A stretch of 49,782 nt of DNA, from NCBI GenBank assembly GCA_003819715.1, contig RPQN01000018.1, forward strand, positions 1 through 49,782, given 5' to 3'. Positions 7,678 through 33,615 of this stretch are shown one piece after another (the first letter of the stretch is position 1; each line of letters starts with the position of its first letter). The notes under the pieces were generated by a model, which did no database searches, was not told the origin of the DNA, and saw only the letters and a list, made by a program, of their open reading frames with translations. The position numbers and the translations under genes are program-made. The stretch comes from Ignavibacteriota bacterium. Its GTDB lineage: Bacteria > Bacteroidota > Ignavibacteria > UBA10030.

Positions 7678-7739
7678 GAAAATTTCATTCCTTCCGCTTG
7701 ATTCATTGACAACGACACTGACCGGACGTTTTTCTCTTT

Positions 7740-9698: not shown

Positions 9699-9705
9699 CT
9701 GCTCC

Positions 9706-11292
9706 TTATTTCATGAATATCATTTTCTTTGTATCTGTTCGTGTCGGTGTTTGAAGTATATAAAAATATATTCCGCTGGATAACCGTGAAGCATCAAATG
9801 TTACACTCTGTTCCTTCTGACGTTCTGCCAGGCCATTGAAGAGGCTCGCGATCTCCTGTCCATATATATTATAGACCGTCAGCGTGGCATGTTCTGTGCT
9901 GGAGAGTACAAAAGAGATTTTTGTACTGGGATTGAATGGATTTGGATAATTCTGTGATAACACAAATCCGGCGGCCATGCCCGAAGATGCCGGCTCGACA
10001 GAAGTCGGCAAACCGGAAACATCCAGCGTATCGAGGATTCCCATGTATTCATTTTTCGTATTATACAATCGGATTGCCGCCGTCTTCGCACTGTTGGGGA
10101 TTCCCAGGGTCTCCTGCAATTGAAATTCCGTAAGAGGAGTGATTGCATGGGATTGTCCTTCAGCCAGAGCCTGTCCTTGCGCATTGACCAATACGATCTT
10201 CGCGGTGCCGGTGTAGAAGACACCATAGATTCCGGAAAAACTATGCGTCGTGGAATTATAAGATAATCTCCCGGCGATCGCGCCGACCGAGTCCACATCC
10301 AGAATCGGCGCCCGGACTTTAGCAGCCCACCAATTTTCCGTGAACGTAGAATTTCCACCGTTGGCCGTAAGCAGAACGACCGGTCCTTTCACTTCAACTT
10401 CCATGTAAAGTGGAATTCCCGCGCCGCTGACGTACACTGTCGTGCGCGCGCCGCCGTCAGGATATTGCCTGCCTTCGAAAACCGGGAAGGTTCTTGCAAA
10501 CACGACCGTATCCGACAAACTGGTATAGGCAATCCAGCCCTTTGCCGGATCGGCAAATACTTTTTTACTGCTTGAAGCAAACTGAACACCATAGATCCCC
10601 GGGACAACTTCTCCCAGCCACGCTGAACTTGCACCATCATACTGAATGCCGTTCGCTCCGTAAACACTGTTGGGATTGAGAGGAAAATACGCCCGGAAAT
10701 TCGTGTAATCTGACTTGCCGGTATGGTTCACAATGGCCGGCGCGATACTCCACATACCCCAGCTGGTATCTTTCGTCCCCTTGTTGATAAGAGTTTGCTC
10801 CATCCGGACCCGGGTCGTACCGGAAAAAAGTGTTGCCCGCCGCTTGAACTGAATATTCGCCGCAGCCCATTTCTCTATGGGGCTCAACACTGTGAGCGAG
10901 ACAGAATCGTTCGTCTGGGTTGCTTCCAAAATCGAGTAGGCACCAAAATCCAGCGTGGGGGGCGGCGGCCAGGTGCCGGGCCAGAGGTTTTGAGGCGAAG
11001 GCCAGTTCTTATATCCGCCAAAATTATAGTATAAACCGTTTGCAGGCGTGTACTTTTTCCCGAACAAGCTCGGGTTCACCATCAGAGATGGAAGGCTCCC
11101 TAAATCGTACTGCATCACCCGTGCACCGATCGCCGGCACCGTGGCCATGGTGATCAGTTCATTCTGCATGACGATGGTGGTATCCCAGCCCCATTGCTTG
11201 TAATTGGAGACGGTGTGCATGGTGACGCCCGGGGTCTGGCCGTACACCATCGCGGAACAGAAACAAACGATGAAGAGACTCAGTTTTCGCAT
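9706..11292 (-). CDS. DUF4380-like secreted protein with T9SS C-terminal sorting domain
   Basis: Signal peptide MRKLSLFIVCFCSAMVYGQ; NELITMATVPAIGARVMQYDLG ... WPSPQNLWPGTWPPPPTLDFGAYS; C-terminus QNYPNPFNPSTKISFVLSS ... KMIFMK. Confidence 0.7.
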   Translation of the reverse strand: MRKLSLFIVCFCSAMVYGQTPGVTMHTVSNYKQWGWDTTIVMQNELITMATVPAIGARVMQYDLGSLPSLMVNPSLFGKKYTPANGLYYNFGGYKNWPSPQNLWPGTWPPPPTLDFGAYSILEATQTNDSVSLTVLSPIEKWAAANIQFKRRATLFSGTTRVRMEQTLINKGTKDTSWGMWSIAPAIVNHTGKSDYTNFRAYFPLNPNSVYGANGIQYDGASSAWLGEVVPGIYGVQFASSSKKVFADPAKGWIAYTSLSDTVVFARTFPVFEGRQYPDGGARTTVYVSGAGIPLYMEVEVKGPVVLLTANGGNSTFTENWWAAKVRAPILDVDSVGAIAGRLSYNSTTHSFSGIYGVFYTGTAKIVLVNAQGQALAEGQSHAITPLTEFQLQETLGIPNSAKTAAIRLYNTKNEYMGILDTLDVSGLPTSVEPASSGMAAGFVLSQNYPNPFNPSTKISFVLSSTEHATLTVYNIYGQEIASLFNGLAERQKEQSVTFDASRLSSGIYFYILQTPTRTDTKKMIFMK

Positions 11293-11470
11293 GAGATCAT
11301 TCTCTCTGATGGTTGAGTGAATGCGCTGAACAAGAAATTATTACGGGAACCGATCACGGACGACTCGCGAGATGAAGCGACCATGGATCTTTTCCCGTTC
11401 TCAACGGGAAAAGATCCACCGGAAGACATGAAATTCGTTCATGATGCAGCTTCACGCCGCTTCGATGAAT

Positions 11471-13567
11471 TTATTTCAGCAGCAGCATCTTTGCCGATCG
11501 AACGAACGTCTTTCCATCCGCCAGCGACGATGCAGCCACCCGATAGACATAGACGCCGCTGGACAATGAACTGCCGCGTTCGTTCGTTCCGTTCCACACC
11601 ACTTTTTGATACCCCGCCGATTGTGCGCCGACGGTGAACGATTTCAGCTCACGGCCCTGCAAATCGAAAATGGTGATCACGACGGAAGATTTCTCGGGCA
11701 GGGAATATGCGATCGTGGTGCTCGGATTGAACGGGTTGGGATAGTTCTGGTAAATCCTGAAATACTCGGGAGCGTTCTCAACGTCGGCAACGCTGGTGGC
11801 CGTTTGTTCCGTCTCGACCAATTCGATGCCGGTGCCCGACGTCGGATTGAGGTTCCGCGAATATTTCATGTCGGTCGCATTGTCCCAGTGTTCATGTGTG
11901 CCGAGGCTGTACACATGCTGGCCCGAGTTATCCGGATCGTACTTAATCCCGACCGGCCAGTTGTTCGAGTCCGCCGCCTGATGGAGATAATCGTCAACGC
12001 CCGGCATTTGCGCCGAGGCGTCGAAGCCGCTGACATCGGTGAATTCCGTTCTGAGGAAATCGTAACCGACGGATTCAATCGCCACCGGGTCAAGAGAGAC
12101 AAACATCGACGACATGAACGTATTGTTGAAGGGAGCCATCTGCCATTTCCGGGGGATGTCCAGTTCGTACGATGTCGCCCAGAGTGCATCCATAATATAG
12201 ATGAGGTTTTTGGCGCCCAGGAATTTGTGCGTAATGAGATCGACCTGTATGCGGTACATCCCGTAATCCGAACGCATCGTCGGATCTATCGCTGTGCCAA
12301 ACGGACGCACCAAGCCCATGTGAAGATGTCCGGCATCGCCGCGCGTATGAGATCCAAAATGATTTTTTGCAAACATGGTGATTCCGCCGCGCTGATGGCC
12401 CTTCAACTGGGGAATATTGATCATATACTCCGCAGTCTCAAAAATGGTGTACAGATAATCCTGAATAACCGGGACCCGGTTCGTGCTGCCGGGGCTCATG
12501 GAATTTGTCAGGAGCACCGATCCTTTGTCGGAATACGTAATTTTTGCAGTCGTGCTGGCGACCACTTTTTCTCTTCCCAGAGTCGTAAGGTTATAGTCGA
12601 GATAATGGACATTGGGGAATTCCCCATGCCACGCATCATAGAGATGTTTGTAGATATGCTTCATCGGATCGCCGACATAAATATCGGTTTGTGCAACACC
12701 GACGACATTCACAAGCTGGCGAAGCACGGTAAGAACCGGCGCAACCGATGTCTCGGAGATATACTGGTTCGGCGTCATGTTCGAAGTATTGAAGTTGCCG
12801 CTCCAGGCGCTTGTGGCATTGGTTTTAATAAAGATCTTTTCGCCCGGTTTATAATTCACAGGACCTTTGCCCCGCTTCGTATTATGGAACTGGAAGACCA
12901 TTCTCCAGGCAGCGCTGTCGGATGTCTGGCCGGTGATGCTGTGCAGGCCGGAGGAGATCATCTTATCAACGGTCGCCTGATTATTGTTCTCTCTCAGGTA
13001 CCATGCATGTCCCGCCTGGTTGACAACGCATTTCTGGTTCACGGCGCTGGTATCATGAATCCAGACCACGCGTCCCGGGAAAATCCCTTTTCCCACCCCC
13101 ATCGGCTGATTCGACGCAACGCTGATTGTCGGAAACTTCTGGAAGTTATCCGGTTCAGCGTAATAGGAGCCGCTGATCCCGAAGACGACAAAAGCCCCGA
13201 GGAAAAATACCGGATAATACCGTAACGATTGTTTTGACCGGAATAATGCGATGCCGGAGATCGCCAGCATCACCAGGTAACCGATGAATCCGGAGGCAAT
13301 CGGCATGGCAGTTCGAACACACGGATACGATAAGCGGCTGGGCTTAGGAATGACGCGAAGAAGGATCCAGACCATTGCAGCAATACCGATGACCGGGAAC
13401 AACAGCCGCGAGAAGCCGTTCAGCCGGCCGACACCGATGAATTTTCCAGTCTGAGGACAGAATTTCAGGTACTTTGTAACGAAGTTTTTCATATGAATAA
13501 TTCCGGATGCAAATCCGCCTTTCCAATGAAGATTGAACCACGTTGTGAATTTATCGGAGCGATCCAT
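11471..13567 (-). CDS. DUF362 domain protein (paralogue of 7740..9698) with N-terminal transmembrane helices and T9SS C-terminal sorting domain
   Basis: Same architecture: RVIPKPSRLSYPCVRTAMPIASGFIGYLVML, KGIFPGRVVW, GEKIFIKTNATSA, LGTHEHWDNATDMKYSRNL, QNYPNPFNPSTTIAYSLPEKS ... KMLLLK. True start may be the internal Met at MKNFVTKYLKF. Confidence 0.8.
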   Translation of the reverse strand: MDRSDKFTTWFNLHWKGGFASGIIHMKNFVTKYLKFCPQTGKFIGVGRLNGFSRLLFPVIGIAAMVWILLRVIPKPSRLSYPCVRTAMPIASGFIGYLVMLAISGIALFRSKQSLRYYPVFFLGAFVVFGISGSYYAEPDNFQKFPTISVASNQPMGVGKGIFPGRVVWIHDTSAVNQKCVVNQAGHAWYLRENNNQATVDKMISSGLHSITGQTSDSAAWRMVFQFHNTKRGKGPVNYKPGEKIFIKTNATSAWSGNFNTSNMTPNQYISETSVAPVLTVLRQLVNVVGVAQTDIYVGDPMKHIYKHLYDAWHGEFPNVHYLDYNLTTLGREKVVASTTAKITYSDKGSVLLTNSMSPGSTNRVPVIQDYLYTIFETAEYMINIPQLKGHQRGGITMFAKNHFGSHTRGDAGHLHMGLVRPFGTAIDPTMRSDYGMYRIQVDLITHKFLGAKNLIYIMDALWATSYELDIPRKWQMAPFNNTFMSSMFVSLDPVAIESVGYDFLRTEFTDVSGFDASAQMPGVDDYLHQAADSNNWPVGIKYDPDNSGQHVYSLGTHEHWDNATDMKYSRNLNPTSGTGIELVETEQTATSVADVENAPEYFRIYQNYPNPFNPSTTIAYSLPEKSSVVITIFDLQGRELKSFTVGAQSAGYQKVVWNGTNERGSSLSSGVYVYRVAASSLADGKTFVRSAKMLLLK

Positions 13568-19315: not shown

Positions 19316-19939
19316 TTAGAATCTGTTCCCGTTTTGCTTTTCGTCTTTCATAATCTTTTCCAAGTCCAAGAGTCCGATAAGTACGGCACTGTTATTTCCT
19401 TCGCCTGCCGCTTCTCCATTATATGTTATTATAAACTTCCCGTCTTTGTAATAGGTAATATCCGAGATGAAATCAAATTGCTTGCGATTGAAGAGAATGG
19501 TAAGCTCGTTATTTGAAAGGGCCTTTACCATCAGATAAAATGTTTCCGAGTCGCCGCGGTATTGCCTGTCAATGCTTTTTAAAGTCACTTTTGAATATTT
19601 CTGTTTATCGACTGGAACATTATGCAGAGAGTAACCGCTTCTATATTCCCCTGTACCATCGTTCATTAAACACTCTCTTTCCTTTGCGATGGCATACGGA
19701 TTCAGAGTATCTAAAATAGCACCGTTGTCTGGGGATATTTCAATAAATGTCGAATCCCAATTCCTGCCGAAAATGAAGTTCGATTCTTTGATATAGACTT
19801 CTCCAACCCGACCTTCAATTTTTATATTCCAGACAAAGTCTTTTACGGTGAACGTATAGTCTTTGTGATTCAAAAAGGTCTTGGTGCACATCATATTGAA
19901 TAACGAGAGTATGGAAAATACAATTATTCGATTTTTCAT
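19316..19939 (-). CDS. Hypothetical exported/lipoprotein-like protein
   Basis: N-terminus MKNRIIVFSILSLFNMMCTKTF resembles a lipoprotein signal; no family recognised. Confidence 0.5.
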   Translation of the reverse strand: MKNRIIVFSILSLFNMMCTKTFLNHKDYTFTVKDFVWNIKIEGRVGEVYIKESNFIFGRNWDSTFIEISPDNGAILDTLNPYAIAKERECLMNDGTGEYRSGYSLHNVPVDKQKYSKVTLKSIDRQYRGDSETFYLMVKALSNNELTILFNRKQFDFISDITYYKDGKFIITYNGEAAGEGNNSAVLIGLLDLEKIMKDEKQNGNRF

Positions 19940-20002
19940 TGGCGGGACATGTACTCTTTTTTCATCGATTCAATTTCAGCAGGACAAAGTCCATCACCGC
20001 CG

Positions 20003-20761
20003 TCACTTGCTGTTATTGTTGACAAAATCAATCATCGGCTGTCCGGGATCATGGAAAATAACCCCCCCATTCTTATCTATCGTATAAAGCAATGCCATCA
20101 TTTTTGTGTATCGTTCCTGCTTCCCGGTGGTAATAGATTTTCGAGTAAGAGCATAATTATTTTTGATTACTTCCACATTCCCAACATCGCTCTCAGGGTG
20201 TTTTTTCGCATAGCCGCTCACAGCCAATTCATGTGCATAGACGACGGCATTTTCTTCTGAATTGACCGCAAGGCCATCCTCCCAAAATTCAGCGATATAG
20301 GTGCCATCGCCAATGTGTTGAATACGGATATCATAGTCTCCTGCAATCTTCTTCTGATCCATCTTTCCGAATTCACTGAACACCAGCAGAAATGTCTCTA
20401 CGTCGAATTGTGTCGCTGCGGCATAGTCGTTCCTTGATTGTTCCCCTAACGCCTGCAATTCATTTTGCTTTTCTTCCGGCCATGTAGTTATTTTTGCTGC
20501 AATAGCTTTATTCTCCATTGATTCCGGGTCTGATTTTTTCGCCGACTGCTTCAGATCGGTAATGGACCGCCCTTTAATTGATTTATAAATTGGATCATTT
20601 TTATCCAGGTAATCTGCTGTTCCATTTTTTGCTGCCATCATGGGTTTCCCCGTTTTATGAGATTGAGAGTAACTATAACCGCCGCTGAATACGAGGAACG
20701 CACTGAGTACGATCAATAGTCGTTGAATAGATTTATTCTTTGAAGATGTCCGTGGCTGCAT
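20003..20761 (-). CDS. Hypothetical exported protein
   Basis: Internal start MQPRTSSKNKSIQRLLIVLSAFLVFSGGYSYSQ gives a signal-peptide-like N-terminus; the ORF-track start at 20881 overlaps the upstream gene. Confidence 0.55.
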   Translation of the reverse strand: MQPRTSSKNKSIQRLLIVLSAFLVFSGGYSYSQSHKTGKPMMAAKNGTADYLDKNDPIYKSIKGRSITDLKQSAKKSDPESMENKAIAAKITTWPEEKQNELQALGEQSRNDYAAATQFDVETFLLVFSEFGKMDQKKIAGDYDIRIQHIGDGTYIAEFWEDGLAVNSEENAVVYAHELAVSGYAKKHPESDVGNVEVIKNNYALTRKSITTGKQERYTKMMALLYTIDKNGGVIFHDPGQPMIDFVNNNSK

Positions 20762-20867
20762 GTATTGATCCTTCAATTGATACCATGTATTACTTTTTTT
20801 CAATCGTGAGAAGCCCTTATCGGTCAGGTGGTTTCCAATAGTACGAGAGTGAACGGCTTTCAGTATT

Positions 20868-23558
20868 TTACCATTGAACATTCAGTGCAACATGAAATAT
20901 GAGCTCATCATAATTGAGCGTGTTGTCGGCAAGATCTTTATAGGCTGTCTGTTCTGCCCTTGCGTTAAGAGTAATATTTTTCCACGGGGAAATGGTCGTC
21001 GTCAAATAAAACCCTGTTTTATGATTCACCGCCTCTTCCGCGGTGACGTCTACTCCGATCGTGCTGGTGAGGAATTCCGAAAATGCGGCGTTGACGCTGA
21101 AATCATAATTGCTGATATGAGAATTTAATGACAACGAAGCTGTTTTAATGAGTCCCCAGGTACCTGAAAATGAGAACGGATTATTAAAGCTTACTCCTTC
21201 AGTTATAGAAATTGAATTGGTGTGATAATCCGACAGGCCGCTGAGGGTGAGTGCTTCATTCCTCGTATAGGCGACCGTGGTGGATATGTTCAATTCATCA
21301 ATGAGCAAAACGTAACCGGTGACCGCGGAGAGCATGGAAGTTTTATTTTCAACCTTCCGGGTAAGAACCGAGTCGTCGTTTTTCTGAACAACCGGTGAAT
21401 ACGAAACCTGCAGGAAAGGAAGTTTCGGAAAATTCAGCCCGAGATTGAGCCCATATGCCGAAGTGGTGGTGGTGGAGCTTTTCCAATCAATGAGGTTGTC
21501 GTGCGAAGTTCTGAAGAATGTACTGAGCGATATTTTTCTGGAAAATAATCCCTGTTCGGCTTTTGCTTCGTAGGCGATTTGATCATTTCTCAAATTCGGC
21601 GCTCCAAGGGATACATACCCTGGTCCGATCATTTTCGTATTAAAAGAAATGCGGGTTGCAGATCCTGTATTGTTATAGGATATTTTTCCTGAATACGAAT
21701 AATCAAAGGAAGAGCTGATTTTAGGATGAAGGACTCCCTTGATCCAGCTTGGGATTTCTTTTATTTCCAGGTCGGCATCTCTTGTATCACGCGTAAGAAT
21801 TGCGGCATTTCCTTCTCCTTCAATGAGAATATGATCCTGAAAGAGAGCCAGTTTTGTTTCCATGCCAAAAACATCATTTGCTTTTGGAGTCAACGGTATA
21901 CTGCCGGGCGATATGGAAGGCCCCATCGCTGAAGTAGTGGATGAAACGGTCATTGAATTTTCATCGTCCTTCACATAAACCCCGGTAAAGAATAAATGAG
22001 TGCCTTCTTTTTTCCCCAGTCCGAGCCGGCCGGCATACAAATTTCTTTGGTACGCAATATTTTGTATACTCCTCTGATTCTTCGATGCCGCGAACGCCGC
22101 ATAAAGAATTCCCGGATTCAGTTCAACATTAATTCCCGTCACCGGAACCCCTTTTAACGTGTAATCAGAATAGGACGGGTAATTTATTCCTATGCCCAGC
22201 GCAATGAAGCTCATCATGAAATTATCCCATCCCGACAGTTCCTTAATTTTATCTCCCAGACGCGTTTTGAGATTTTCCCGATAGCTCTTAAAATCAACAT
22301 TAAAAGCGAAGCGGTTGATGCTCTGGCGATCCGATCCATTCTGCGAAGAAAGAAGAATGTTTGCCGTGATGGGAAGATCATACAGTATCAGAGAAGGATT
22401 AAGCTCCGCTGTTAAAATACTCTTCGGTACCTCTGAAAACGGCAAGTCTTTGTAGCCGGTCTCCCAGCTTAATTTTGCATTTCCTGAAAATAGAAGAGGA
22501 CTTGGTTTGTTTTCTTTTTCATTTTCATATATCATATCCGCTAATTGTGAATTGTCTGTCGATGCAAGCAGCAGGTGTTGCCCGGCAAAGGAAGAGGAGG
22601 TATTGCCCAATTCGTTTGCCGACGTTGATTTATTATCGACGAACGTATGCTGTGAATTATCGGTATAGGTAAATTCCCAAGTCTCGCTTTCAGAAATCAG
22701 TTCATTGTTGAGATACGCACCCACCTGCCACGCATACGTCCTGTTGTTTTCAAACCTCCTGCCTCCCGTCGGATATAAAAAAACACTGGAATAAATATTT
22801 TGATTTTTATAGAAGGCGGGATTGGATAAGAGCGCATCAGAGGGGGATTGATTCCCCAGCATCTCCGCAATTCTTATGGAGTATGTTGCCTTAACGCCCG
22901 GCGGGATGGGAGAAGGCGGCAGCCAGTTGAACGTAATGGAGGAGCCATTAACATAATTGGCCGGTATTCCTGTGTCTTCATTTGTTTTCGTTCCCGTTGT
23001 TGTCATTCCATCATTCCCCGATCCAGCAACATCAGTTCCGCCCCCTGAAATTATCTTCACGCCGTTTTCCGGCAGCAACAGTTCAACCTGGGACATGTTC
23101 TGTGTCTGCGCCTGTATGCATTGTGTCCCAAGTTCCACTCCGGTTTCTGCATTGAAAACCGTAACACAAATCTCATAATCGCCCGTAGGGACAGCGCCGA
23201 CATTCTCAACCACATTCGCGTATTTGTTATTATTGACATCAACACTCATGGGAACAAGCTCCCGCGAATTTACAACTTTTACGCCGGGGGCTAATGAAAA
23301 AGCAGCCGTCGTTGCAGATACGATTTGTCCTTTTGCCGATTCGCTTGCGACACCATGCAGGTACACCCGATACGTTGTCGTTGTGGGATTTATTAATGTC
23401 ACCTTCCACATATGTTCAATCTTGAACTGGAAGGGAGGCGGCTGCTGAAGGACAACGGTGACCTGGGCATGGAGATCCATTTGAGAAAATAAGAGCATCA
23501 CCGCAAGAGCCGAAACAATACAGCGTACGTTTATTCGTTTCACAAAATTCCTTTTCAT
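20868..23558 (-). CDS. Secreted/outer-membrane protein: N-terminal TANFOR-like module plus putative beta-barrel C-terminal half
   Basis: Signal-like N-terminus ending LFSQMDLHAQ; N-terminal module paralogous to 25768..30612; C-terminal half has alternating beta-strand patterns and ends ...ELIFHVALNVQW (terminal aromatic). ATG at 23558 preferred over the GTG at 23588. Confidence 0.65.
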   Translation of the reverse strand: MKRNFVKRINVRCIVSALAVMLLFSQMDLHAQVTVVLQQPPPFQFKIEHMWKVTLINPTTTTYRVYLHGVASESAKGQIVSATTAAFSLAPGVKVVNSRELVPMSVDVNNNKYANVVENVGAVPTGDYEICVTVFNAETGVELGTQCIQAQTQNMSQVELLLPENGVKIISGGGTDVAGSGNDGMTTTGTKTNEDTGIPANYVNGSSITFNWLPPSPIPPGVKATYSIRIAEMLGNQSPSDALLSNPAFYKNQNIYSSVFLYPTGGRRFENNRTYAWQVGAYLNNELISESETWEFTYTDNSQHTFVDNKSTSANELGNTSSSFAGQHLLLASTDNSQLADMIYENEKENKPSPLLFSGNAKLSWETGYKDLPFSEVPKSILTAELNPSLILYDLPITANILLSSQNGSDRQSINRFAFNVDFKSYRENLKTRLGDKIKELSGWDNFMMSFIALGIGINYPSYSDYTLKGVPVTGINVELNPGILYAAFAASKNQRSIQNIAYQRNLYAGRLGLGKKEGTHLFFTGVYVKDDENSMTVSSTTSAMGPSISPGSIPLTPKANDVFGMETKLALFQDHILIEGEGNAAILTRDTRDADLEIKEIPSWIKGVLHPKISSSFDYSYSGKISYNNTGSATRISFNTKMIGPGYVSLGAPNLRNDQIAYEAKAEQGLFSRKISLSTFFRTSHDNLIDWKSSTTTTSAYGLNLGLNFPKLPFLQVSYSPVVQKNDDSVLTRKVENKTSMLSAVTGYVLLIDELNISTTVAYTRNEALTLSGLSDYHTNSISITEGVSFNNPFSFSGTWGLIKTASLSLNSHISNYDFSVNAAFSEFLTSTIGVDVTAEEAVNHKTGFYLTTTISPWKNITLNARAEQTAYKDLADNTLNYDELIFHVALNVQW

Positions 23559-23590
23559 TAGCTTATGAATGAGTCCACAAAGACTCACTT

Positions 23591-25726
23591 TTATTCAATA
23601 ATTTTACCCACCACTTCGCTCAACGTTGACTGACCGCCATCCTTCATAACGGCCTTTATTGCATAGTAATTTGTCTTATGGGCATTCTTGTCGGTATAAG
23701 ACTTTTCCGTCGTGATGTCATATTGCGTTAAGTTTCCGTTATCGTCCTTTTTGTAAACAATAAAAGAAGGCTCAACTTTTGAGGAAGGATAATTCCAGGT
23801 CAGGATAATATTTTTCTTTTCGACTTTTGCATTGAGGTTTTCAATGGGAGGCCGAATGCCGGTGTCATATGGTTTGCCGTATACCGCGGATGCATAATGA
23901 GAATACAATCCGCCAAAATCCTTCGCCCTTATTGAATAATAGTACGTAACTCCCGTCGTTACGTTCGTATCAATAAATTTGGATAAAAGGGAACTGAACA
24001 TGCTCAGAATTTGCCATTCAGACTTCAAGTCTGTTTTTCTGTAGAGAATATGCTCTTGTACATCTGCACTGCTGCTTGAGACAAAGAATAATTCCACTTG
24101 TTTTTCTTTCACAACGACACTTGTAAATATCGGAGAGACAGGTGCTATGGTGTCCGGTCGCGCGACTTTGAGGAGATCCGAAAAATCTGATTGATTGTAG
24201 TTGAAATCGAGAGCTTTCACTTTATAATAGATAAACGGAGTTAAAGAATTTAACGTGACCGTGTCTTTGAATACGGTTTGAATTTCCTGATTTAAGGAAT
24301 CGTTCTCGACAAAGCCCTCGACCATAACGGAAAATTCATGTTCGGGGCTGTTTGCCTTGAAGAGCCGATACCCCATCAAATCTTTTTCTTTGCTTTTCTT
24401 CACCGTTATCGTCACCACTCCCAACGAATCTATTGTCCCCGATAGAAAAGCAGGCTTGCCGGGGGGTATGGAATCAATCAACGTGACCGATACCGGGAAT
24501 GAGGAGCTTACATTATTTGCCGTATCCATTGCCTGGACGACATAATAATTTGCCTGCCCTCTGACAAATGTCGTATCCGTAAATGTTCTTGCTTCTTTCG
24601 GCAGCATCGCCTGATGCAGGACTTTAAAATCTCCTTCATTTTTATTTGCCCGTGCAACAAAAAATCCTTTTAAGTCCGGAGCCGGAACCGGGTTCATCTG
24701 CCACGTCACCAATACTTCGTTTGGTTTTACATTTTGAGGCTGCGGCAAAAACGGTTGTTCGGGAGGAGTCAAATCCTTAGGCATGGCTTTCACTTCTGCA
24801 AATTGTACTTTTTCACCGAACAATGTGTAACCAAAAAATCGATACGTATAGACTTGATAATTGATAAGGTTTTTGTCGTTGAATCCGCTTCTCGATTCGC
24901 CGCCCGCAGCGCTGCCTTCAAGATTATGAATAGGCGCCTTATTCAATTGAGTAAATGTCGTCTCGCCTGGATTCGCACGTTCTACAAAATATCCTGAAAG
25001 ATCCGGTGTCTCTATCCAGGCAAAAAATAATTCCGTATCTCCCTGTTTCACATAAACCGGGTTATCATAGCCCTTCTTAAGGTTTTCAGCAACAATTCTA
25101 TAATCAACGGAGATAACCGTATAAACATCGGATTTCCCAACAGGTCTTGCTCGATAGAAATAGGTCTTCCCTTTTATTGCGGTACTATCCGTATACGCTA
25201 AACCCAATGCGGTTGCAGCCTTTGCGTCTTTGAGAGCAGTGAGTGTAAATATCATATACTCGAAATCTTCCTTACTCTTTTGATCTTTTAATTCAGCAAT
25301 TCCTTTTTCGAAATTGAATGCTCCCCCTTTTCCCTTGTCAATGTTTTTCAGAAAATCTCTTGCAATCTCCAATTCATTCTTTGATTCCAGGCTTTTCTCG
25401 CTCCTGAGAGCAGTTTCCCATTGAGTATCGCTGTAAGGAAATATTCTTGCAATTTCTGCATACGTCATTTTATTGGGATCTTTTCTTATAATCGACGTAT
25501 CGAAAAGCATTCGCTCTATAATAAACCCTTCTTTAAACCCGACTTCCAAAACAGATTTTTTATCGGGGAAAAATCGAATTTCAACACCTTTGCCCTCCGT
25601 ATATCTGCCGATTAAATTAATAGTGCTGACCGGATTGATGACGGGTTCTGCATCTTGCGCAAAGCAATTGCTCGCGTAAAATAATATTGATGCGATAGTG
25701 AGAATGTGTCTTGTTTGTTTATTCAT
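23591..25726 (-). CDS. Secreted fibronectin type III-repeat protein
   Basis: Signal peptide MNKQTRHILTIASILFYASNCFAQ; repeated Fn3-like motifs (YFYRARPVG, YQVYTYRFFGYTLFG, ANYYVVQAMDTANNVS, FIYYKVKALDFNYNQSD, VTYYYSIRAKDFGGLYS). Confidence 0.75.
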   Translation of the reverse strand: MNKQTRHILTIASILFYASNCFAQDAEPVINPVSTINLIGRYTEGKGVEIRFFPDKKSVLEVGFKEGFIIERMLFDTSIIRKDPNKMTYAEIARIFPYSDTQWETALRSEKSLESKNELEIARDFLKNIDKGKGGAFNFEKGIAELKDQKSKEDFEYMIFTLTALKDAKAATALGLAYTDSTAIKGKTYFYRARPVGKSDVYTVISVDYRIVAENLKKGYDNPVYVKQGDTELFFAWIETPDLSGYFVERANPGETTFTQLNKAPIHNLEGSAAGGESRSGFNDKNLINYQVYTYRFFGYTLFGEKVQFAEVKAMPKDLTPPEQPFLPQPQNVKPNEVLVTWQMNPVPAPDLKGFFVARANKNEGDFKVLHQAMLPKEARTFTDTTFVRGQANYYVVQAMDTANNVSSSFPVSVTLIDSIPPGKPAFLSGTIDSLGVVTITVKKSKEKDLMGYRLFKANSPEHEFSVMVEGFVENDSLNQEIQTVFKDTVTLNSLTPFIYYKVKALDFNYNQSDFSDLLKVARPDTIAPVSPIFTSVVVKEKQVELFFVSSSSADVQEHILYRKTDLKSEWQILSMFSSLLSKFIDTNVTTGVTYYYSIRAKDFGGLYSHYASAVYGKPYDTGIRPPIENLNAKVEKKNIILTWNYPSSKVEPSFIVYKKDDNGNLTQYDITTEKSYTDKNAHKTNYYAIKAVMKDGGQSTLSEVVGKIIE

Positions 25727-25767
25727 AATGATATCTGCTTTTTAATTGTTGAATTATTTTTTGCATG

Positions 25768-28700
25768 TTAATGGAGATGCGGCAGCGATGTACTCACTGT
25801 TGCAAGCTGGGACCCCGTCTTGAAATTTTTGGTAACGGTCTGTGCAACAACGGCGTTATTCTTGTTTTTGGCATTGATCCAGGTATTATTGACGTACTCT
25901 TTCAAGGCAGCCGTAACGGTAAAAACATAATTTTTATTGAGTGTGAGATTATTTTTTATCTCAGGCGGTTCGGGCGGTAAATTATTATACGTATTCGTTA
26001 CTGGCGGCAGAGGGTAGCTCACAGTCTGTATATTGCTGATACTGAGCGATGTATTGCTTATCGGATGAATAGCATTGGTATTGGTACTCGCAGTGTTGAG
26101 ATGTGCCGATGTTTGACCAATCGTTATTGGTGTTGATGTATTTATTACGGTTGGCACTAATACCGTATAGAGAAACTCTCCCAGATTATTTTGTCTTGTC
26201 TTTAATGATTGATTGGTCAATGACCCGTTATCATTTTGAATTTTTATGCTCGTCGTGACCACCAGTTTAAATGTTCTGCTTTTTACAGAACCATCCGATT
26301 GCTGCTCTGATACATCAAATACATTGCCGGGGATCAATCCGTACTCGACGGCTAAAGGAGCGGTGATGGGAAAGTCAAAATGCTGATCCGGATGTACATA
26401 TTTTATCAATAATTGTTGTTGCTCTCCGGCGGCATCTCCTTGAGCAACCGTTGCTCCCGTTAACGCGCCTGATGTCCCGCAATCGGTGCCCTTCACAAAA
26501 GTTTTATCAAAAGAGGCATTCACCAAATAATGGTCCTGAGGATGCACACACGCTGACCACGATGGCCAATATGCCGGTCCTGACCAATCGCCTGTAGAAT
26601 GTATCCAGGTCGTATAGTGACCGATGAGCACAGATCCCTGAATTTCTCCGGCAACATAGACGGGATTTGGAAATTTTCCTGTTAACCAGCCTCCGGCTTT
26701 AATGTCTGCAAGCGGCCAGGTGTGACCATCACTTGATCTTTTGATACTAGCGAGTACAGAAGCATAAAAGCCTATGTCCCCAGAAGCCTGCCATCCGTTA
26801 ATTCCAATCCGTTCGGAAGGGTTCTCGCAATTCTGTCCGCTATACTCCGCAAAAGCTAAATCTAATTCTGCACCTGCTGCCAATGCTAACGATGCATCAT
26901 AGTTGCCCGTGACATTAAATCCAAAATCATTTTTAAATGTAAATCCTACGCCAAGCGCTAATCCTTTGCCGGTTGCCGTATTATTATTGGTGACACCGAG
27001 GGTTTTTACTCCCATCCCTGGATCATGTCCGAACACACCGCGATAACCGTCCTTAAATGTTTGTGTAAATCCTGAGGGCGGCGTGATGTGATTGCCAAAC
27101 ATCAAATATTGATATAAATGGGCGGTGAAAAGATCTACATTCACGTCAACTTTCGTTAACGAATTATCATTGGACGATGGTTCTCCGAACTTAAAATACC
27201 ACTGATTTACTTTCCCATTAATATCCAAGACAAGATTCGCCGGACTTGGTGTTGAGATCGGCGGAGCATTTACCATAACGTTTGCAGAAAGGTTAAAATG
27301 CTTATCCGGGAAATTATACGTGACGCTCACATTTCCCTTCACGTTCGCCTTCGCTCTTTTGGGAGCGGTAAGACCGGCGGCAACATAAAAGTCGCCTGTA
27401 AATGCAATGAATATTAAACCCTCGGATTTTGAAAACTGCGCATCCAATGCGACGTCTGCATTAAAAGATTCTTCTTTTGGTGTCGTGGCAATCGTTGCCG
27501 CAATTTTCAAACCAAACGTTGAGTATTTCGGTTTAAATGTAAATCTTTTACCCGATGGTGTTTTCGTGGAGGCCGACAATATTGCATCCATATTATAGTA
27601 GGCACCGCCGCCAAAACCTCTAAAAGCAATGCCCGGCAAAAACGGAACTCCCGGTGGAGGTAAGAGTACATCAGCTTCTACGCGCCAGTATCTGTACAAC
27701 GTACTTCCATGTTGATAATTGGTATTGCCGAATTCTAATAATGCGTCTGCTGTTATTCCAACCGGTGTAAAAGCGACGCTTAATGTTCCTAAGAAACCAT
27801 CGCCAAAAACAGAGTCATGATTTCTGAATAAAATACTCCCATCAATTTTTACTGCCGGTAAATTTGCATGGACGGCAAGGCTATCGAGAGATATCCCCTT
27901 GAATTGCGGCGTAAATTTCTTCGCGCTGGTATTTAATTCCACCGCAAAATTAGCGCCTATGGTTGTACTTCCGCCAATATCCTCGGTAAGGTCGGCAACG
28001 ATATCAAGACAGACCTCCCCTCTTAAGAGCTCTTTGACGTTCGCACTGCCGGAAGGCACTGTTGATTTTGATTTATAATAGATCTTTTTAATTGAGACAG
28101 GGAAATTAGCTAAGAATTTCTGAGGACTCGCAAAACTCCACGAACCAGGGCTGAACTTGAGAGAATCAGTGGACGGAGTATTTTTGTAAGTTAATCCGAC
28201 ATTCTCAAAGTCCAATTCCATATTGACTTTTAAAGTATTGAAGGGAGATGGAAAAGTTGGATTATCCCACTTGAATTTACCATTAAGCATTATAGAAAAT
28301 GTTTTTAAGGTGGGAGTAATAACCGCGGTAATATTTGTCGTTGGGAGTAAAGTCATCTCTCCCTTCAATATATCGGCTTCAATAGGCCCCGACGGCATAA
28401 CCACTATTTGAAAACTGTTCGCATTTGAAACCTGGCTGAATACGGCGGTGTACTTCAACGTATTGGTGATGGTGTCTTTGCTGATGGGCAATACCAGCAA
28501 TCCTTTCGCCGTTCCGCTGGTTAAAGAACCTTTCAGCATAGCGATCTCAAGAGTATCAAGACTGGCACTTAAATTTGCCACGCTGCCGCTGGCGAACGTA
28601 ACAACATGTAATGCCTTCATTTTTAATGTGATGCCATAATCATCAATGATGAGATCATTCGCAGTTATAAATGTTGGATTTGCGCCTGTCTTCCAGGTTT

Positions 28701-30612
28701 CAGGCAGCGTGAGTTTAAACTTTTTCACATACAGTCCCCGCCAGAGCAGCCTTCCCGCAGCGGTCGTATCATCGGTGTAATTTTTAGGGAAGAACATGCC
28801 GGCAGGATTCCTGACATCTGAAAGGTCGAGAGCAATGGAGTCCACCTGAATTTTCAACCCGTTCGTACCAATTATTTCGCAATCCGGCAAATTTCCGGAA
28901 AGAATTATGTCCTGCATACTCGTCCCATTTCCCGAGAGAGTTGCTTTCACGGAATCCGTTGAAGTTGGGATGGGAAGCAGCCAATCTCGTGAAAATTTAA
29001 TTTCAAGGCCGAGACTGATATTGGTAATACCAGTATCTGCCCACTGAACATAACATCCGGAGTTTGCTGCCCCCTTCTTAAAGTTGAATTTCATTTTTGG
29101 ATTGGATGTTACATTGGGTAATGTAAAATCATTCACCAGTTCAACGCGCCCATTGGTAAAATCAATGCTGCTGGGATGTATCTTAAAGTATTTTCCCGCG
29201 AATCCGAGCTTATACGGAGTGCCTGATTTTGTAAACTGTTCCTGTGCCAGGAAATTAATTTTAGATTCATTCTGTTTGAATATGATTTCGGTAATCACCA
29301 ATTTCTGATTGCCGTTATTGAACTGTAAACCAAAAGGCATTTTAAGAGGATTGCTCGGTAAATTGGGAGTTGGAATAACATTTGAATAGTTCATGGACGG
29401 CTGACCAAAATTTAGACCATTAGTCCATGTAATCAGATCATTAACCTGGTTATTGGACCAATTTATAGTGTTATCGACAACATTAGCTACCCCCGGACCT
29501 GAGAGCAAACTTAGCGCCCAGGCTTTGGGATATGCCTGATATGAGGTACTGGAACTGCCGCTTTCAGTAGTTACAATGCCCCCGGAAGTCAAACGCTTTA
29601 ACGTATCTATTCGTATCTTTTTAAATTCAACTGCAACACTTGTCAACAACCAGTGTATGTACACACTGCCATTACCAGAAAGCGAACTATCCGCTTCGTG
29701 GGTCATTTGAGAAACAACAACCTTAAATTCTCCATTCAGTCCAGCCTTTATCGTATCGCCTGCTGCGACGGTCCCCGTTCCTCCTCCAGATGTGGTGCTA
29801 TCCGGCGCGTTCGTCGTGAGCAAGCTTTTTGCATGACCCTGGTTTTTTGCAATCCCGAACATAAACGGCGCCGCCAATCCGTTATTCTCTCCAATGCCTT
29901 GTCCTGTATTATCGAGGCACTGTACATTCCACGCATATTTTTTATCCGTATCAAGCTTTCTCGCCGATACCGGGTATTGAAACATGGTTGCTCTGATATC
30001 CGTTTTTTCAAACCAAGCCGTATTTCTTTGTAAAGCAAATTCAGGAGATTGATTTCCAAGTATCTCCACAATCATGAGTTTGTATTTGATTTGTCCTGAA
30101 GGAGCCGGCATGGGTGGCAGCCATGTGAAAAAGAGAGACTGACCTTCCGGCAGAGAATCGCCGTCAGCAGGCGCCAGAAGGGCAGGCGATGAAATTATTT
30201 CCACTCGTTGATCAATACAGTCGCTCCCAATTTCCTCGCCGGAAATATCTTTTACATGAATACATATGGTGTAATTTCCGGAAGGCGCATTGCCCGTGCG
30301 GGTAAATGCATTGTTCCATTTACCTGATTTGAAATTGACATTTCCGGTTTTGACATCTTCGTATGTAATTTTCTTCATTCCGGGAGGCAGGCTGATGGGC
30401 TTTGAATTCCCTTCCACGACGATTCCCTCGCTCGCTTCATCGAGTGTTCCGTTTAATGTCACCTGAAGGGTGTTCCGGCCGGAATTCATAAGCGTCACTT
30501 TCCATATATCCGCTGCGCGGAGCTGGTTGGGCGGAGGCTGCAGAAGCTTTACCGAAACCTGCGCAAAACAAAACCCGGTAAACAACATTGAAAGAAAAAT
30601 TAGTTTTCGCAT
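25768..30612 (-). CDS. Giant (1614 aa) secreted protein with N-terminal TANFOR-like module
   Basis: Signal peptide MRKLIFLSMLFTGFCFAQ; N-terminal module VSVKLLQPPPNQLRAADIWKVTLMN...TLNGTLDEASEGIVVEG...GNYTICIHV...LFFTWLPPMPAPSGQIKYKLMIVEILGNQSP matches 20868..23558; the remainder is beta-rich and unassigned. Confidence 0.75.
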   Translation of the reverse strand: MRKLIFLSMLFTGFCFAQVSVKLLQPPPNQLRAADIWKVTLMNSGRNTLQVTLNGTLDEASEGIVVEGNSKPISLPPGMKKITYEDVKTGNVNFKSGKWNNAFTRTGNAPSGNYTICIHVKDISGEEIGSDCIDQRVEIISSPALLAPADGDSLPEGQSLFFTWLPPMPAPSGQIKYKLMIVEILGNQSPEFALQRNTAWFEKTDIRATMFQYPVSARKLDTDKKYAWNVQCLDNTGQGIGENNGLAAPFMFGIAKNQGHAKSLLTTNAPDSTTSGGGTGTVAAGDTIKAGLNGEFKVVVSQMTHEADSSLSGNGSVYIHWLLTSVAVEFKKIRIDTLKRLTSGGIVTTESGSSSTSYQAYPKAWALSLLSGPGVANVVDNTINWSNNQVNDLITWTNGLNFGQPSMNYSNVIPTPNLPSNPLKMPFGLQFNNGNQKLVITEIIFKQNESKINFLAQEQFTKSGTPYKLGFAGKYFKIHPSSIDFTNGRVELVNDFTLPNVTSNPKMKFNFKKGAANSGCYVQWADTGITNISLGLEIKFSRDWLLPIPTSTDSVKATLSGNGTSMQDIILSGNLPDCEIIGTNGLKIQVDSIALDLSDVRNPAGMFFPKNYTDDTTAAGRLLWRGLYVKKFKLTLPETWKTGANPTFITANDLIIDDYGITLKMKALHVVTFASGSVANLSASLDTLEIAMLKGSLTSGTAKGLLVLPISKDTITNTLKYTAVFSQVSNANSFQIVVMPSGPIEADILKGEMTLLPTTNITAVITPTLKTFSIMLNGKFKWDNPTFPSPFNTLKVNMELDFENVGLTYKNTPSTDSLKFSPGSWSFASPQKFLANFPVSIKKIYYKSKSTVPSGSANVKELLRGEVCLDIVADLTEDIGGSTTIGANFAVELNTSAKKFTPQFKGISLDSLAVHANLPAVKIDGSILFRNHDSVFGDGFLGTLSVAFTPVGITADALLEFGNTNYQHGSTLYRYWRVEADVLLPPPGVPFLPGIAFRGFGGGAYYNMDAILSASTKTPSGKRFTFKPKYSTFGLKIAATIATTPKEESFNADVALDAQFSKSEGLIFIAFTGDFYVAAGLTAPKRAKANVKGNVSVTYNFPDKHFNLSANVMVNAPPISTPSPANLVLDINGKVNQWYFKFGEPSSNDNSLTKVDVNVDLFTAHLYQYLMFGNHITPPSGFTQTFKDGYRGVFGHDPGMGVKTLGVTNNNTATGKGLALGVGFTFKNDFGFNVTGNYDASLALAAGAELDLAFAEYSGQNCENPSERIGINGWQASGDIGFYASVLASIKRSSDGHTWPLADIKAGGWLTGKFPNPVYVAGEIQGSVLIGHYTTWIHSTGDWSGPAYWPSWSACVHPQDHYLVNASFDKTFVKGTDCGTSGALTGATVAQGDAAGEQQQLLIKYVHPDQHFDFPITAPLAVEYGLIPGNVFDVSEQQSDGSVKSRTFKLVVTTSIKIQNDNGSLTNQSLKTRQNNLGEFLYTVLVPTVINTSTPITIGQTSAHLNTASTNTNAIHPISNTSLSISNIQTVSYPLPPVTNTYNNLPPEPPEIKNNLTLNKNYVFTVTAALKEYVNNTWINAKNKNNAVVAQTVTKNFKTGSQLATVSTSLPHLH

Positions 30613-30926: not shown

Positions 30927-31598
30927 TTAAAGAAGGTTCTCTTTATATACTTTTGATACAGCGCCGCTGAGGGTGTGAACCTGAAGCTTGATATAGATGT
31001 TTTTGAGGTGCGTATTAACGGTGTGGAAACTTAAAAATAATTGTTTGGCAATTTTCTTCTTGGTGGATCCATTGACCATGAGCTTAAGGATTTCTTTTTC
31101 GCGATCGGTCAGCCCATAATTCCCTTTCGGAGCAGCGAGGCTCGTAAACAGGTCGAGAACGGTATGCGCAATGGACGCATTCATGGGAGCACCGCCGGCA
31201 AGGACTTCTTTGATTGCTTCAATTGCATTTTCGGGAGATGAATCTTTGAGGATGTACCCCGATGCCCCGGCACAAAGTGCATTGAACACATTGATACTGT
31301 CATCGTGGATGGTCAGCATAATGATGTTCGTTGAGGGGCTGGCCGCTTTGAATTGTTTTACCCCTTCGACACCGTCCATTCCCGGCAATCCAATATCGAG
31401 CAGGATGACTTCAGGCGGTTCGGACGATTCGAGCGTTTTCAATGCTTCTTCGCATGACGTGAACCCGAATGCGCAGCGCATCCCTTCGGTTTCGTTGATC
31501 AGCTCAGCGAGGGTTTTCTGGAAATGGATATTGTCTTCCACTAGCCAAATTGTAACGCGTTGAGCAAGTGATTGCTTTTTTCCCATTCGTTGCTTCAT
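30927..31598 (-). CDS. NarL/FixJ-family response regulator (REC + LuxR-type HTH)
   Basis: IWLVEDNIHFQKTLAELI, PEVILLDIGLPGMDGVEGVKQF, LTIHDDS; C-terminal LTDREKEILKLMVNGSTKKKIAKQLFLSFHTVNTHLKNIYIKLQVHTLSGAVSK. Confidence 0.95.
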   Translation of the reverse strand: MKQRMGKKQSLAQRVTIWLVEDNIHFQKTLAELINETEGMRCAFGFTSCEEALKTLESSEPPEVILLDIGLPGMDGVEGVKQFKAASPSTNIIMLTIHDDSINVFNALCAGASGYILKDSSPENAIEAIKEVLAGGAPMNASIAHTVLDLFTSLAAPKGNYGLTDREKEILKLMVNGSTKKKIAKQLFLSFHTVNTHLKNIYIKLQVHTLSGAVSKVYKENLL

Positions 31599-31797
31599 GG
31601 TTGTTTAACATACGTCTTCGAAATCGTCAGCACCATACCACCTTCGTGGTATAATAGAAATATATTCATGAAAGTTGCACGAGGACGATTTACAAAATTT
31701 TATATTCCTCTGAACATCTACACGCAGCCTTACATCAACTTGCACGAACCTTTGGAGCTGACCTTGGAAGAGGATTCGCTCCCGACAAAGGCATTTG

Positions 31798-33615
31798 TTA
31801 TGGCTTCTCTGTTGGTACAGAAAGTGTGATTTTGACACCCCGTCCAGTGCAACTTGAAATATCAATTATTGCTCCAATCTTTGCCGCACGGTCACTGAGG
31901 TTTTTCAACCCCAGTCCATCTTTTACATCCCCGGCTTCAAATCCAACGCCGTCATCACAAACCGAGAGAATAAATCTATTGGATTGACTTTTGATTTCTA
32001 TAGCCACCTTCGTGGCATTTGCATGTTTCACAATATTATGGAGGATTTCCTTATAAATAAGATAGATCTCTTTGCGTATAAGAAGATCCGGCATCGATTC
32101 AATTATGTGACCGGATGTATTGAAGGTATATTGGAGATCGGTGAGGAATTTTGGGGTCACTTCCTTTAATCGTTGTATGAGATCGACAAATTTATCATGC
32201 TGGGGATTGATGAACCAAACGATATCGCGGATCGCATCAGTCGTTTCTTTTGCAATTGCCGTTATTTCAGCGAGGCGGTGCTTTTCCAGTTGACTAAGCT
32301 TCGCGCTCCGCCGAATCATCTGGCTGGTCATGGATATGCTGCTCAGATTGCTGCCAATTTCATCGTGAAGATCGGCAGCAATACGGCTTCGCATTTCTCC
32401 CTTTTCCAATTCTTTCTCAATCTTGATCGTGTTAATCCTATCGCCAAGGGCAAAGGAAAACAACGTCATTTCCCAGAGCATCCCGGCCTGGAGAGTATAT
32501 TCGGTGAAGAGGTTCAGGGGAAGAACGCCGGAAACGCGCAGCCCTCTGACAATCAGACCGATGAGGAATCCCATGACAGCGAGTAAATAGAAACGTGCGG
32601 GTGCGTAACGGTTCTGCAAACCGATAATCGCCATTGCCGTCGTTAATAAAGCATAGGGAATGATGATAAACGATATCATTCTATTCATCAATGGACCTGA
32701 AGTTATGGACGCAAAGATCAGCACCATCCCTCCAAGAATGGCACACACGGTTAATCCCTTATGAAGGAGCGGACTAAATCGCGATGAGAAAAGTATTCGC
32801 TGAGTGAACAACGAGCCGAACAAGAGGAAAAATCCAATCGCCATCTGGAATATATGGACAGACGCCACGACGGAATTTGGGAAAAAGTATTCTTCGTAGA
32901 GTCCGTCGACGACCATCTGATGAAACACATAACCCGCGACGTATAAAACGTAAAATAAATATGATGTATCGCGAATTGCAAGAAAGAGAAAGAGGTTATA
33001 CAAAACCAGTATCAGAATGGATCCATAAAATATACCAAGGTAGAACTGTGCATTGTGGTCAGCATCCATATACCGTTGGAGCGTCATAAGCCGCAGATAC
33101 AAGGCAACAGAACTTTGCGATTCAAAACGAACATACAGCGTCTGGTTGATCATGCGCTGCGATCTTATGCTGAACGCTGCACGACGATCCTTGATTTCGC
33201 GCCGGTTAAACGGCAATAACGTCCCGGCATGTTTTGAAAATATTCGATGTAATGAATCGACGATAAAGAGATCCACGTTGTCGATGCCCGGGTAATTGGC
33301 CTGAAGAATCCATCTATTTCCATTGAGAGTGGAATCTACAATCTCAACCCTCACCCACCACGATGAGTTTGTGATGCCTGGGTTGAGCATGGTGTTGGAC
33401 GCCGGTTTGAATTGATACAAAATCTCCGGTGAGAGTATTTCCTGAATGGTCCGTAAACAGCTTTTGTCTTCGAATACACTAAGATATGGTGTTAACTCAT
33501 ATTCAACGTTACTCGCATTGAGAACAAGCTTGTTTTGTGCCTGCGTGTTTACTATAAAACTTATGATTGTTACAAGGATAACAACTGCACGGTTCAGGAA
33601 GTACGATGGGGTCAT
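31798..33615 (-). CDS. 7TMR-DISM sensor histidine kinase (HisKA_3/HATPase_c)
   Basis: 7TMR-DISM extracellular region followed by multiple TM helices; DLHDEIGSNLSSISMTSQMIRRS phosphoacceptor; HNIVKHANATKVAIEI and CDDGVGFEAGDVKDGLGLKNLSDRAAKIGA ATPase motifs. Confidence 0.9.
   Translation of the reverse strand: MTPSYFLNRAVVILVTIISFIVNTQAQNKLVLNASNVEYELTPYLSVFEDKSCLRTIQEILSPEILYQFKPASNTMLNPGITNSSWWVRVEIVDSTLNGNRWILQANYPGIDNVDLFIVDSLHRIFSKHAGTLLPFNRREIKDRRAAFSIRSQRMINQTLYVRFESQSSVALYLRLMTLQRYMDADHNAQFYLGIFYGSILILVLYNLFLFLAIRDTSYLFYVLYVAGYVFHQMVVDGLYEEYFFPNSVVASVHIFQMAIGFFLLFGSLFTQRILFSSRFSPLLHKGLTVCAILGGMVLIFASITSGPLMNRMISFIIIPYALLTTAMAIIGLQNRYAPARFYLLAVMGFLIGLIVRGLRVSGVLPLNLFTEYTLQAGMLWEMTLFSFALGDRINTIKIEKELEKGEMRSRIAADLHDEIGSNLSSISMTSQMIRRSAKLSQLEKHRLAEITAIAKETTDAIRDIVWFINPQHDKFVDLIQRLKEVTPKFLTDLQYTFNTSGHIIESMPDLLIRKEIYLIYKEILHNIVKHANATKVAIEIKSQSNRFILSVCDDGVGFEAGDVKDGLGLKNLSDRAAKIGAIIDISSCTGRGVKITLSVPTEKP

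What the first reader, a model, noticed from the sequence alone, without database searches (positions are those of the whole stretch)
20868..30612. Candidate undescribed system: three-gene cassette of a giant secreted protein, Fn3 protein and outer-membrane barrel sharing an N-terminal module
Seen in sequence: the three genes are nearly contiguous (41-nt and about 30-nt gaps), and all have signal-peptide-like N-termini. The 1614-aa and 906-aa proteins share a modular N-terminus: xVxLxQPPPxQ...WKVTLxN, then G(D/N)YxIC(V/I), then (F/T)WLPPxPxP...I(A/V)E(M/I)LGNQSP, then Y(A)WxV. The 906-aa protein appends a likely beta-barrel, and the Fn3 protein sits between them. Inference: a surface assembly or secretion/adhesion machine in which the shared module mediates recruitment to the barrel. 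The giant protein lacks an obvious T9SS tail, so it may use the linked barrel instead. The shared module resembles TANFOR-like domains, but I could not verify this.
Basis: partly seen in the sequence, partly recalled or inferred. Interest (0 to 1): 0.7.

Follow-up and report, generated by a model that had tools for sequence, protein, structure and literature searches.

The report
Divergent TANFOR cassette with paired outer-membrane barrel
Three neighbouring genes encode a conserved cell-surface cassette whose outer-membrane barrel appears to be the missing partner of TANFOR proteins, a group of large Bacteroidota proteins that often carry toxins and whose route out of the cell is unknown.

Summary
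The 1614-aa giant, 711-aa Fn3 protein and 906-aa protein lie head to tail, and the giant and the 906-aa protein share a ~235-aa N-terminal module. The module is a divergent TANFOR domain (TIGR02542) plus an Fn3-like domain. The trio is conserved: a giant "core" profile is found in 45 of 396 phylum genomes. In 58 fetched core loci, a Fn3-protein homologue lies within 1 kb in 47 and a barrel homologue within 3 kb in 42. Twenty control stretches hold none. In other Bacteroidota the same barrel, core and Fn3 genes cluster with separate TANFOR proteins, and some of those carry toxin-type domains.

Across 29 cassettes the module co-varies with the barrel (partial r 0.66) but barely with the core in its own polypeptide (0.19). 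The core co-varies with the Fn3 protein (0.76). The window's cassette is mosaic along the same lines.

Most likely the barrel is the outer-membrane docking, anchoring or export partner of TANFOR modules; whether T9SS also takes part is open. None of the three proteins carries a T9SS tail, although the genome has about 122. No toxin domain was found in this giant. Structure models failed (pLDDT below 30).

The parts
25768..30612 (-). Giant protein, 1614 aa: TANFOR-Fn3 module, large core, Ig-like C-terminal stretch; hydrophobic leader, no T9SS tail
   Evidence: ORF; no Pfam or NCBIfam family; relatives
29851..30558 (-). N-terminal module of the giant (residues 19-254): divergent TANFOR domain plus Fn3-like domain
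   Evidence: Module profile; hhalign against TIGR02542-positive modules, probability 100%, E = 2.6e-45
26581..29745 (-). Conserved beta-rich core of the giant (residues ~290-1344), unannotated
   Evidence: Profile A7 found in 45/396 genomes; strong beta alternation z = 9.4; fold not obtained
23591..25726 (-). Secreted multi-Fn3 protein, 711 aa, conserved partner of the core
   Evidence: fn3; profile matches to Fn3-containing PDB chains; family A3; co-varies with the core
20868..23588 (-). Module-barrel fusion protein, 906 aa (about 896 aa if the start is the ATG at 23558)
   Evidence: ORF; module and barrel profiles
22665..23462 (-). Second copy of the TANFOR-Fn3 module, fused to the barrel
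   Evidence: phmmer E = 2.2e-42 to the giant's N-terminus; module tree
20871..22502 (-). Predicted outer-membrane beta-barrel (residues 363-906), ends in W
   Evidence: Alternation z = 7.1 and 44/57 homologues ending in F or W; fold not obtained

Best explanation
The trio is a divergent TANFOR cassette. Shown by sequence: the giant's N-terminus is a TANFOR-Fn3 module fused to a large beta-rich core; a barrel-like protein and a multi-Fn3 protein are its conserved neighbours; module and barrel vary together, as do core and Fn3 protein. Inferred: all three pass Sec; the barrel inserts in the outer membrane and is the docking, anchoring or export partner of the module; core and Fn3 protein form a second unit that projects from or spans the envelope. 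In split lineages the same barrel and core serve separate TANFOR proteins, some carrying nuclease or pretoxin domains; in the window the module is built into the core protein and a second module into the barrel, so this copy looks like a self-contained surface structure without a toxin. Whether the barrel itself translocates the giant, or T9SS does so without a classical tail, is open.
For: Module is TANFOR-related. Trio conserved across the phylum, 0/20 controls. Split clusters with TANFOR proteins carrying toxin-type domains. Module-barrel partial r 0.66 and core-Fn3 0.76 over 29 cassettes; module-barrel 0.90 in 8 cassettes where the barrel is the furthest gene. Mosaic window cassette. Barrel clade of six fusions and three barrels with a separate module protein in the operon; fused modules form one clade. 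No T9SS tail.
Against: No structure: both models have pLDDT below 30. Most barrels lack a module. Some TANFOR loci show no barrel in the fetched stretch. Every core genome has SprA, so a T9SS route is possible. Co-variation was tested post hoc with identity distances. No toxin domain or immunity partner in the window, so its function cannot be read from cargo.
Confidence: 0.55

Rival explanations
1. T9SS exports the giant and other TANFOR proteins through SprA using a non-classical signal (as Jana et al. hypothesised); the barrel only anchors them at the surface, as PorP-like proteins are proposed to do for type B T9SS proteins.
For: All 45 core genomes have SprA; the genome has 122 T9SS tails; the hypothesis and SprB/tail enrichment in PMC7073777; PorP-like anchoring from the abstract of PMC9143113.
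Against: No T9SS tail in the window trio, in 20 giants scanned or in 16 Fn3 proteins. SprA is near universal in the sample (165 of 171 genera), so co-occurrence says little.
Confidence: 0.3
2. An ordinary surface adhesion or fibre operon in which the shared module is only a structural building block, with no specific module-barrel partnership.
For: Fn3-like domains in module and Fn3 protein; this giant has no recognised enzymatic or toxin domain.
Against: Module and core lie in one polypeptide yet co-vary less than module and barrel do, even where the barrel is the furthest gene; the module is tied to TANFOR proteins with toxin-type domains.
Confidence: 0.2
3. The window giant is itself a polymorphic toxin with an unrecognised C-terminal toxin domain, and the 292-aa gene downstream is its immunity gene.
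For: TANFOR kinship; unannotated small genes downstream.
Against: The C-terminal region 1361-1600 is conserved with L064 and L113 (51-72% identity) and aligns with further giants, unlike a swapped toxin tip; the downstream genes have no homologue in the other cassettes compared and lie behind the barrel, not behind the giant.
Confidence: 0.06

Closest known systems
TANFOR-domain polymorphic toxins of Bacteroidetes (TIGR02542; Jana, Salomon, Bosis 2020, PMC7073777)
   Same: Homologous N-terminal module, Fn3-rich neighbourhood, large secreted proteins, Bacteroidota/Ignavibacteria range, no T9SS tail on the trio
   Different: Window module scores below the TIGR02542 model; no toxin or immunity domain found; the module is fused to a conserved core and a second copy to an outer-membrane barrel; the barrel and core are not mentioned in the sections of that paper read here
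T9SS type B substrates with PorP/SprF-like partners (e.g. SprB)
   Same: Very large surface protein encoded with an outer-membrane barrel; T9SS-bearing genomes
   Different: No type A or B sorting tail; no family match of the barrel; unrelated giant
Two-partner secretion (TpsA/TpsB, CdiA/CdiB), from general knowledge
   Same: Large exoprotein plus dedicated outer-membrane barrel; N-terminal module of the exoprotein linked to the barrel
   Different: No TPS, POTRA or haemagglutinin-repeat family match; an additional Fn3 protein; the link rests on co-variation only

Membership tests
TANFOR domain proteins (TIGR02542) | Score above the curated cut-off of TIGR02542 (67 bits) | tested here: not met
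   No match in the window's genome at E <= 0.001. No genome in samples of 149 and 396 reached the cut-off either
TANFOR domain proteins (TIGR02542) | Homology of the N-terminal module to TIGR02542-positive proteins | tested here: met
   hhalign 100%, E = 2.6e-45 over 234 columns; the target set is 14/14 TIGR02542-positive
TANFOR polymorphic toxins | C-terminal toxin domain | tested here: not met
   No Pfam or NCBIfam toxin family in the window giant; present in relatives L109, L084, L085
TANFOR polymorphic toxins | Immunity gene directly downstream of the toxin gene | tested here: not met
   The next gene is the Fn3 protein, then the barrel; genes at 19316-20881 have no immunity family match
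T9SS substrates | C-terminal sorting domain (TIGR04183 or TIGR04131) | tested here: not met
   No match in the trio, 20 giants or 16 Fn3 proteins, while the genome has 122 TIGR04183 matches
Two-partner secretion / type V | TPS domain on the exoprotein, POTRA plus ShlB-type barrel on the transporter | tested here: not met
   No such Pfam family in the trio or in 20 barrel homologues
Outer-membrane beta-barrel proteins | Amphipathic strands, C-terminal aromatic, closed barrel fold | tested here: inconclusive
   Alternation and terminal aromatic met; fold not obtained, pLDDT 29.9
Secreted proteins (Sec) | N-terminal signal peptide | tested here: inconclusive
   Hydrophobic leaders ending A|Q read by eye in all three; no signal-peptide program available

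The most novel reading that the evidence does not exclude
Barrel, core and Fn3 protein form a so far undescribed dedicated outer-membrane export or presentation machine for TANFOR proteins, working without the T9SS sorting tail, with the TANFOR module as its recognition signal.
Probability: 0.3. Interest if true: 0.82.

Novelty: new variant of a known kind. Interest (0 to 1): 0.62.

Why it matters
How TANFOR polymorphic toxins leave the cell was left open in 2020, with T9SS proposed. A conserved barrel that co-varies with the TANFOR module names a concrete partner and makes the question testable by gene removal and binding assays. It would also suggest roles for unannotated protein families: the core alone occurs in roughly a tenth of the sampled genomes of the phylum.

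Tried and rejected
Viral contigs: three scans found no relatives. PDB profile searches of barrel and giant gave nothing credible. SprA co-occurrence 45/45: rejected as evidence, because 165 of 171 genera have SprA. Internal repeats in the core, or core-barrel homology, by hhalign: none. ORFs next to the TANFOR or Fn3 genes in L094, L100, L101 and L086 as divergent barrels: not supported. Reading the window giant as a toxin: rejected, no toxin domain. Adjacency alone as the cause of module-barrel co-variation: not sufficient, it holds where the barrel is the furthest gene.

Full report
OBSERVATION. The three ORFs are present as described. The giant (25768-30612), the Fn3 protein (23591-25726) and the 906-aa protein (20868-23588) are on the - strand with a 41-nt gap and a 2-nt gap (32 nt if the 906-aa protein starts at the ATG at 23558). 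The giant and the 906-aa protein share an N-terminal stretch of about 235 aa (phmmer E = 2.2e-42; alignment). Pfam and NCBIfam recognise only weak fn3 matches and unrelated low-score hits in the trio.

WHAT THE MODULE IS. TIGR02542 (TANFOR) does not match the window's genome, but an order-mate giant (G235, L080) does at 2.9e-4. An alignment of 18 modules from the window and relatives (A11) aligned over 234 columns with 14 TIGR02542-positive modules (A12; 14/14 match) at 100% probability, E = 2.6e-45. The first half is the TANFOR domain; the second half is Fn3-like (an fn3 hit at residues 192-282 of the L109 proteins; weak fn3 match at 213-243 in the window barrel protein). One caution: the module ranges were delimited with a profile that already included TANFOR proteins, although the aligned sequences of the two sets are disjoint.

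CONSERVATION. A profile of the giant's core (residues ~290-1345) is found in 45 of 396 genomes sampled across the phylum, in 32 of 171 genera. In 58 core-bearing loci a Fn3-protein homologue lies within 1 kb on the same strand in 47 and a barrel homologue within 3 kb in 42; several of the rest are cut by contig ends or by the fetched stretch. The set includes loci fetched through the TANFOR and barrel searches as well as core hits. None of 20 control stretches, nearly all from genomes of the same set, hits any of the four profiles. Gene order is barrel-giant-Fn3 in 24 complete cassettes, giant-Fn3-barrel in 10 including the window, and giant-barrel-Fn3 in one. Named relatives are a Melioribacter MAG (Ignavibacteria), Persicobacter sp. 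JZB09 and, partly, Bergeyella porcorum.

LINK TO TANFOR TOXINS. In the window's class, TIGR02542-positive giants carry the same core and sit in the same trio (L090-L092, L095, L097). In several other families the core is a separate protein of about 1100-1690 aa without module, and the TANFOR protein is a separate neighbour (barrel, core, Fn3 and TANFOR genes together in L129, L136, L140, L141 and L084; in G342 and G412 the pieces are spread over neighbouring stretches of one contig). Some of these TANFOR proteins carry toxin-type domains: a colicin/pyocin DNase domain in L109 (E = 3.9e-41), a PT-HINT pretoxin domain in L084, DUF6883 in L085. L109 holds two TANFOR proteins with nearly identical modules but different ends. 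Jana et al. (PMC7073777) described TANFOR proteins as polymorphic toxins, reported Fn3 domains enriched nearby and hypothesised T9SS export; the sections read do not mention a barrel or the core.

THE PAIRING. Distances among 29 non-redundant complete cassettes were compared. The giant's module tracks the barrel (partial r 0.66, 0/2000 permutations), and the core tracks the Fn3 protein (0.76, 0/2000), while module and core, in the same polypeptide, are nearly independent (0.19). In the giant-Fn3-barrel order, where the barrel is separated from the module by core and Fn3 genes, module-barrel is still 0.90 (8 cassettes, 0/2000). The window shows it directly: giant residues 1-240 are 70-73% identical to L120 and 53-61% to L064; residues 241-1600 are 49-80% identical to L064/L113 and 18-50% to L120; the barrel protein follows L120 (55-80%), the Fn3 protein follows L064/L113 (55-88%). 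One replacement of the middle block explains this single case; the 29-cassette result is the general argument. This analysis was built after seeing the data, on simple identity distances, and permutation does not remove relatedness, so it should be repeated with trees and a larger sample.

BARREL-FUSED MODULES. The window's barrel belongs to a 9-row clade (100/100) of six module-barrel fusions and three barrels whose operon holds a separate module protein (L073, L074, L078). The five barrel-fused modules long enough to be placed form one clade (95/91). So a second module joined this barrel lineage probably once and has been kept.

BARREL AND CORE STRUCTURE. The barrel family shows strong two-residue hydrophobic alternation (z = 7.1), and 44 of 57 distinct complete members end in F or W. 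The Fn3 protein shows no alternation (z = -0.1) and 13 of 60 end in F or Y. The core also alternates strongly (z = 9.4), which would fit a large beta-barrel, a groove or a solenoid. AlphaFold2 from two-row alignments failed for both.

T9SS. The genome has 122 T9SS-tail matches and SprA, and four tail-bearing proteins lie in this window at 6532-13567, but the trio has no tail. All 45 core genomes have SprA, but so do 165 of 171 genera sampled, and the SprA-lacking genomes that were listed are nearly all one family, so this neither proves nor excludes T9SS involvement.

MECHANISM. Shown: homology, conservation, co-variation, absence of T9SS tails. Inferred: Sec export of all three; barrel insertion in the outer membrane; module docking at the barrel; core plus Fn3 protein as a second physical unit. 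Open: which machine moves the giant across the outer membrane, and what the window's toxin-free version does; a surface adhesion or display role is the plainest guess.

VERDICT. The finding is real and worth follow-up. It is a divergent, toxin-free variant of a known protein group, and it exposes a conserved partner barrel for that group which was not found described in the papers searched here.

Noticed in passing
window 30927-33615 (-): A LuxR-type response regulator and a 7TMR-DISM histidine kinase lie directly upstream of the giant on the same strand and could regulate the cassette.
   Followed up: no
window 6532-13567 (-): Array of four T9SS-tail proteins, two of them with DUF362 and one with CBM9.
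   Followed up: no
window 19316-20881 (-): Two small unannotated genes downstream of the barrel (292 and 207 aa); the 292-aa ORF overlaps the barrel gene by 14 nt unless it starts later. No homologues in the other cassettes compared.
   Followed up: partly
L109:8827-19105: Two TANFOR proteins in one cluster with nearly identical modules but different C-termini, one ending in a colicin/pyocin-type DNase domain.
   Followed up: partly
L078:5000-17052; L075:3895-17479: Cassettes of the window's barrel clade without the core: L078 has a stand-alone module, two large unannotated proteins and the barrel; L075 has two module-bearing giants beside a module-barrel fusion.
   Followed up: no
L119 and L122 (same genome G370); L102, L128, L137 (same genome G515): Several cassettes in one genome that fall in different clades of the barrel and module trees, so the cassette rather than the genome looks like the unit of inheritance.
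   Followed up: partly
window 26581-29745 (core): The core has barrel-like amphipathic beta alternation over about 1000 residues, with no detectable internal repeats and no conserved aromatic C-terminus.
   Followed up: partly
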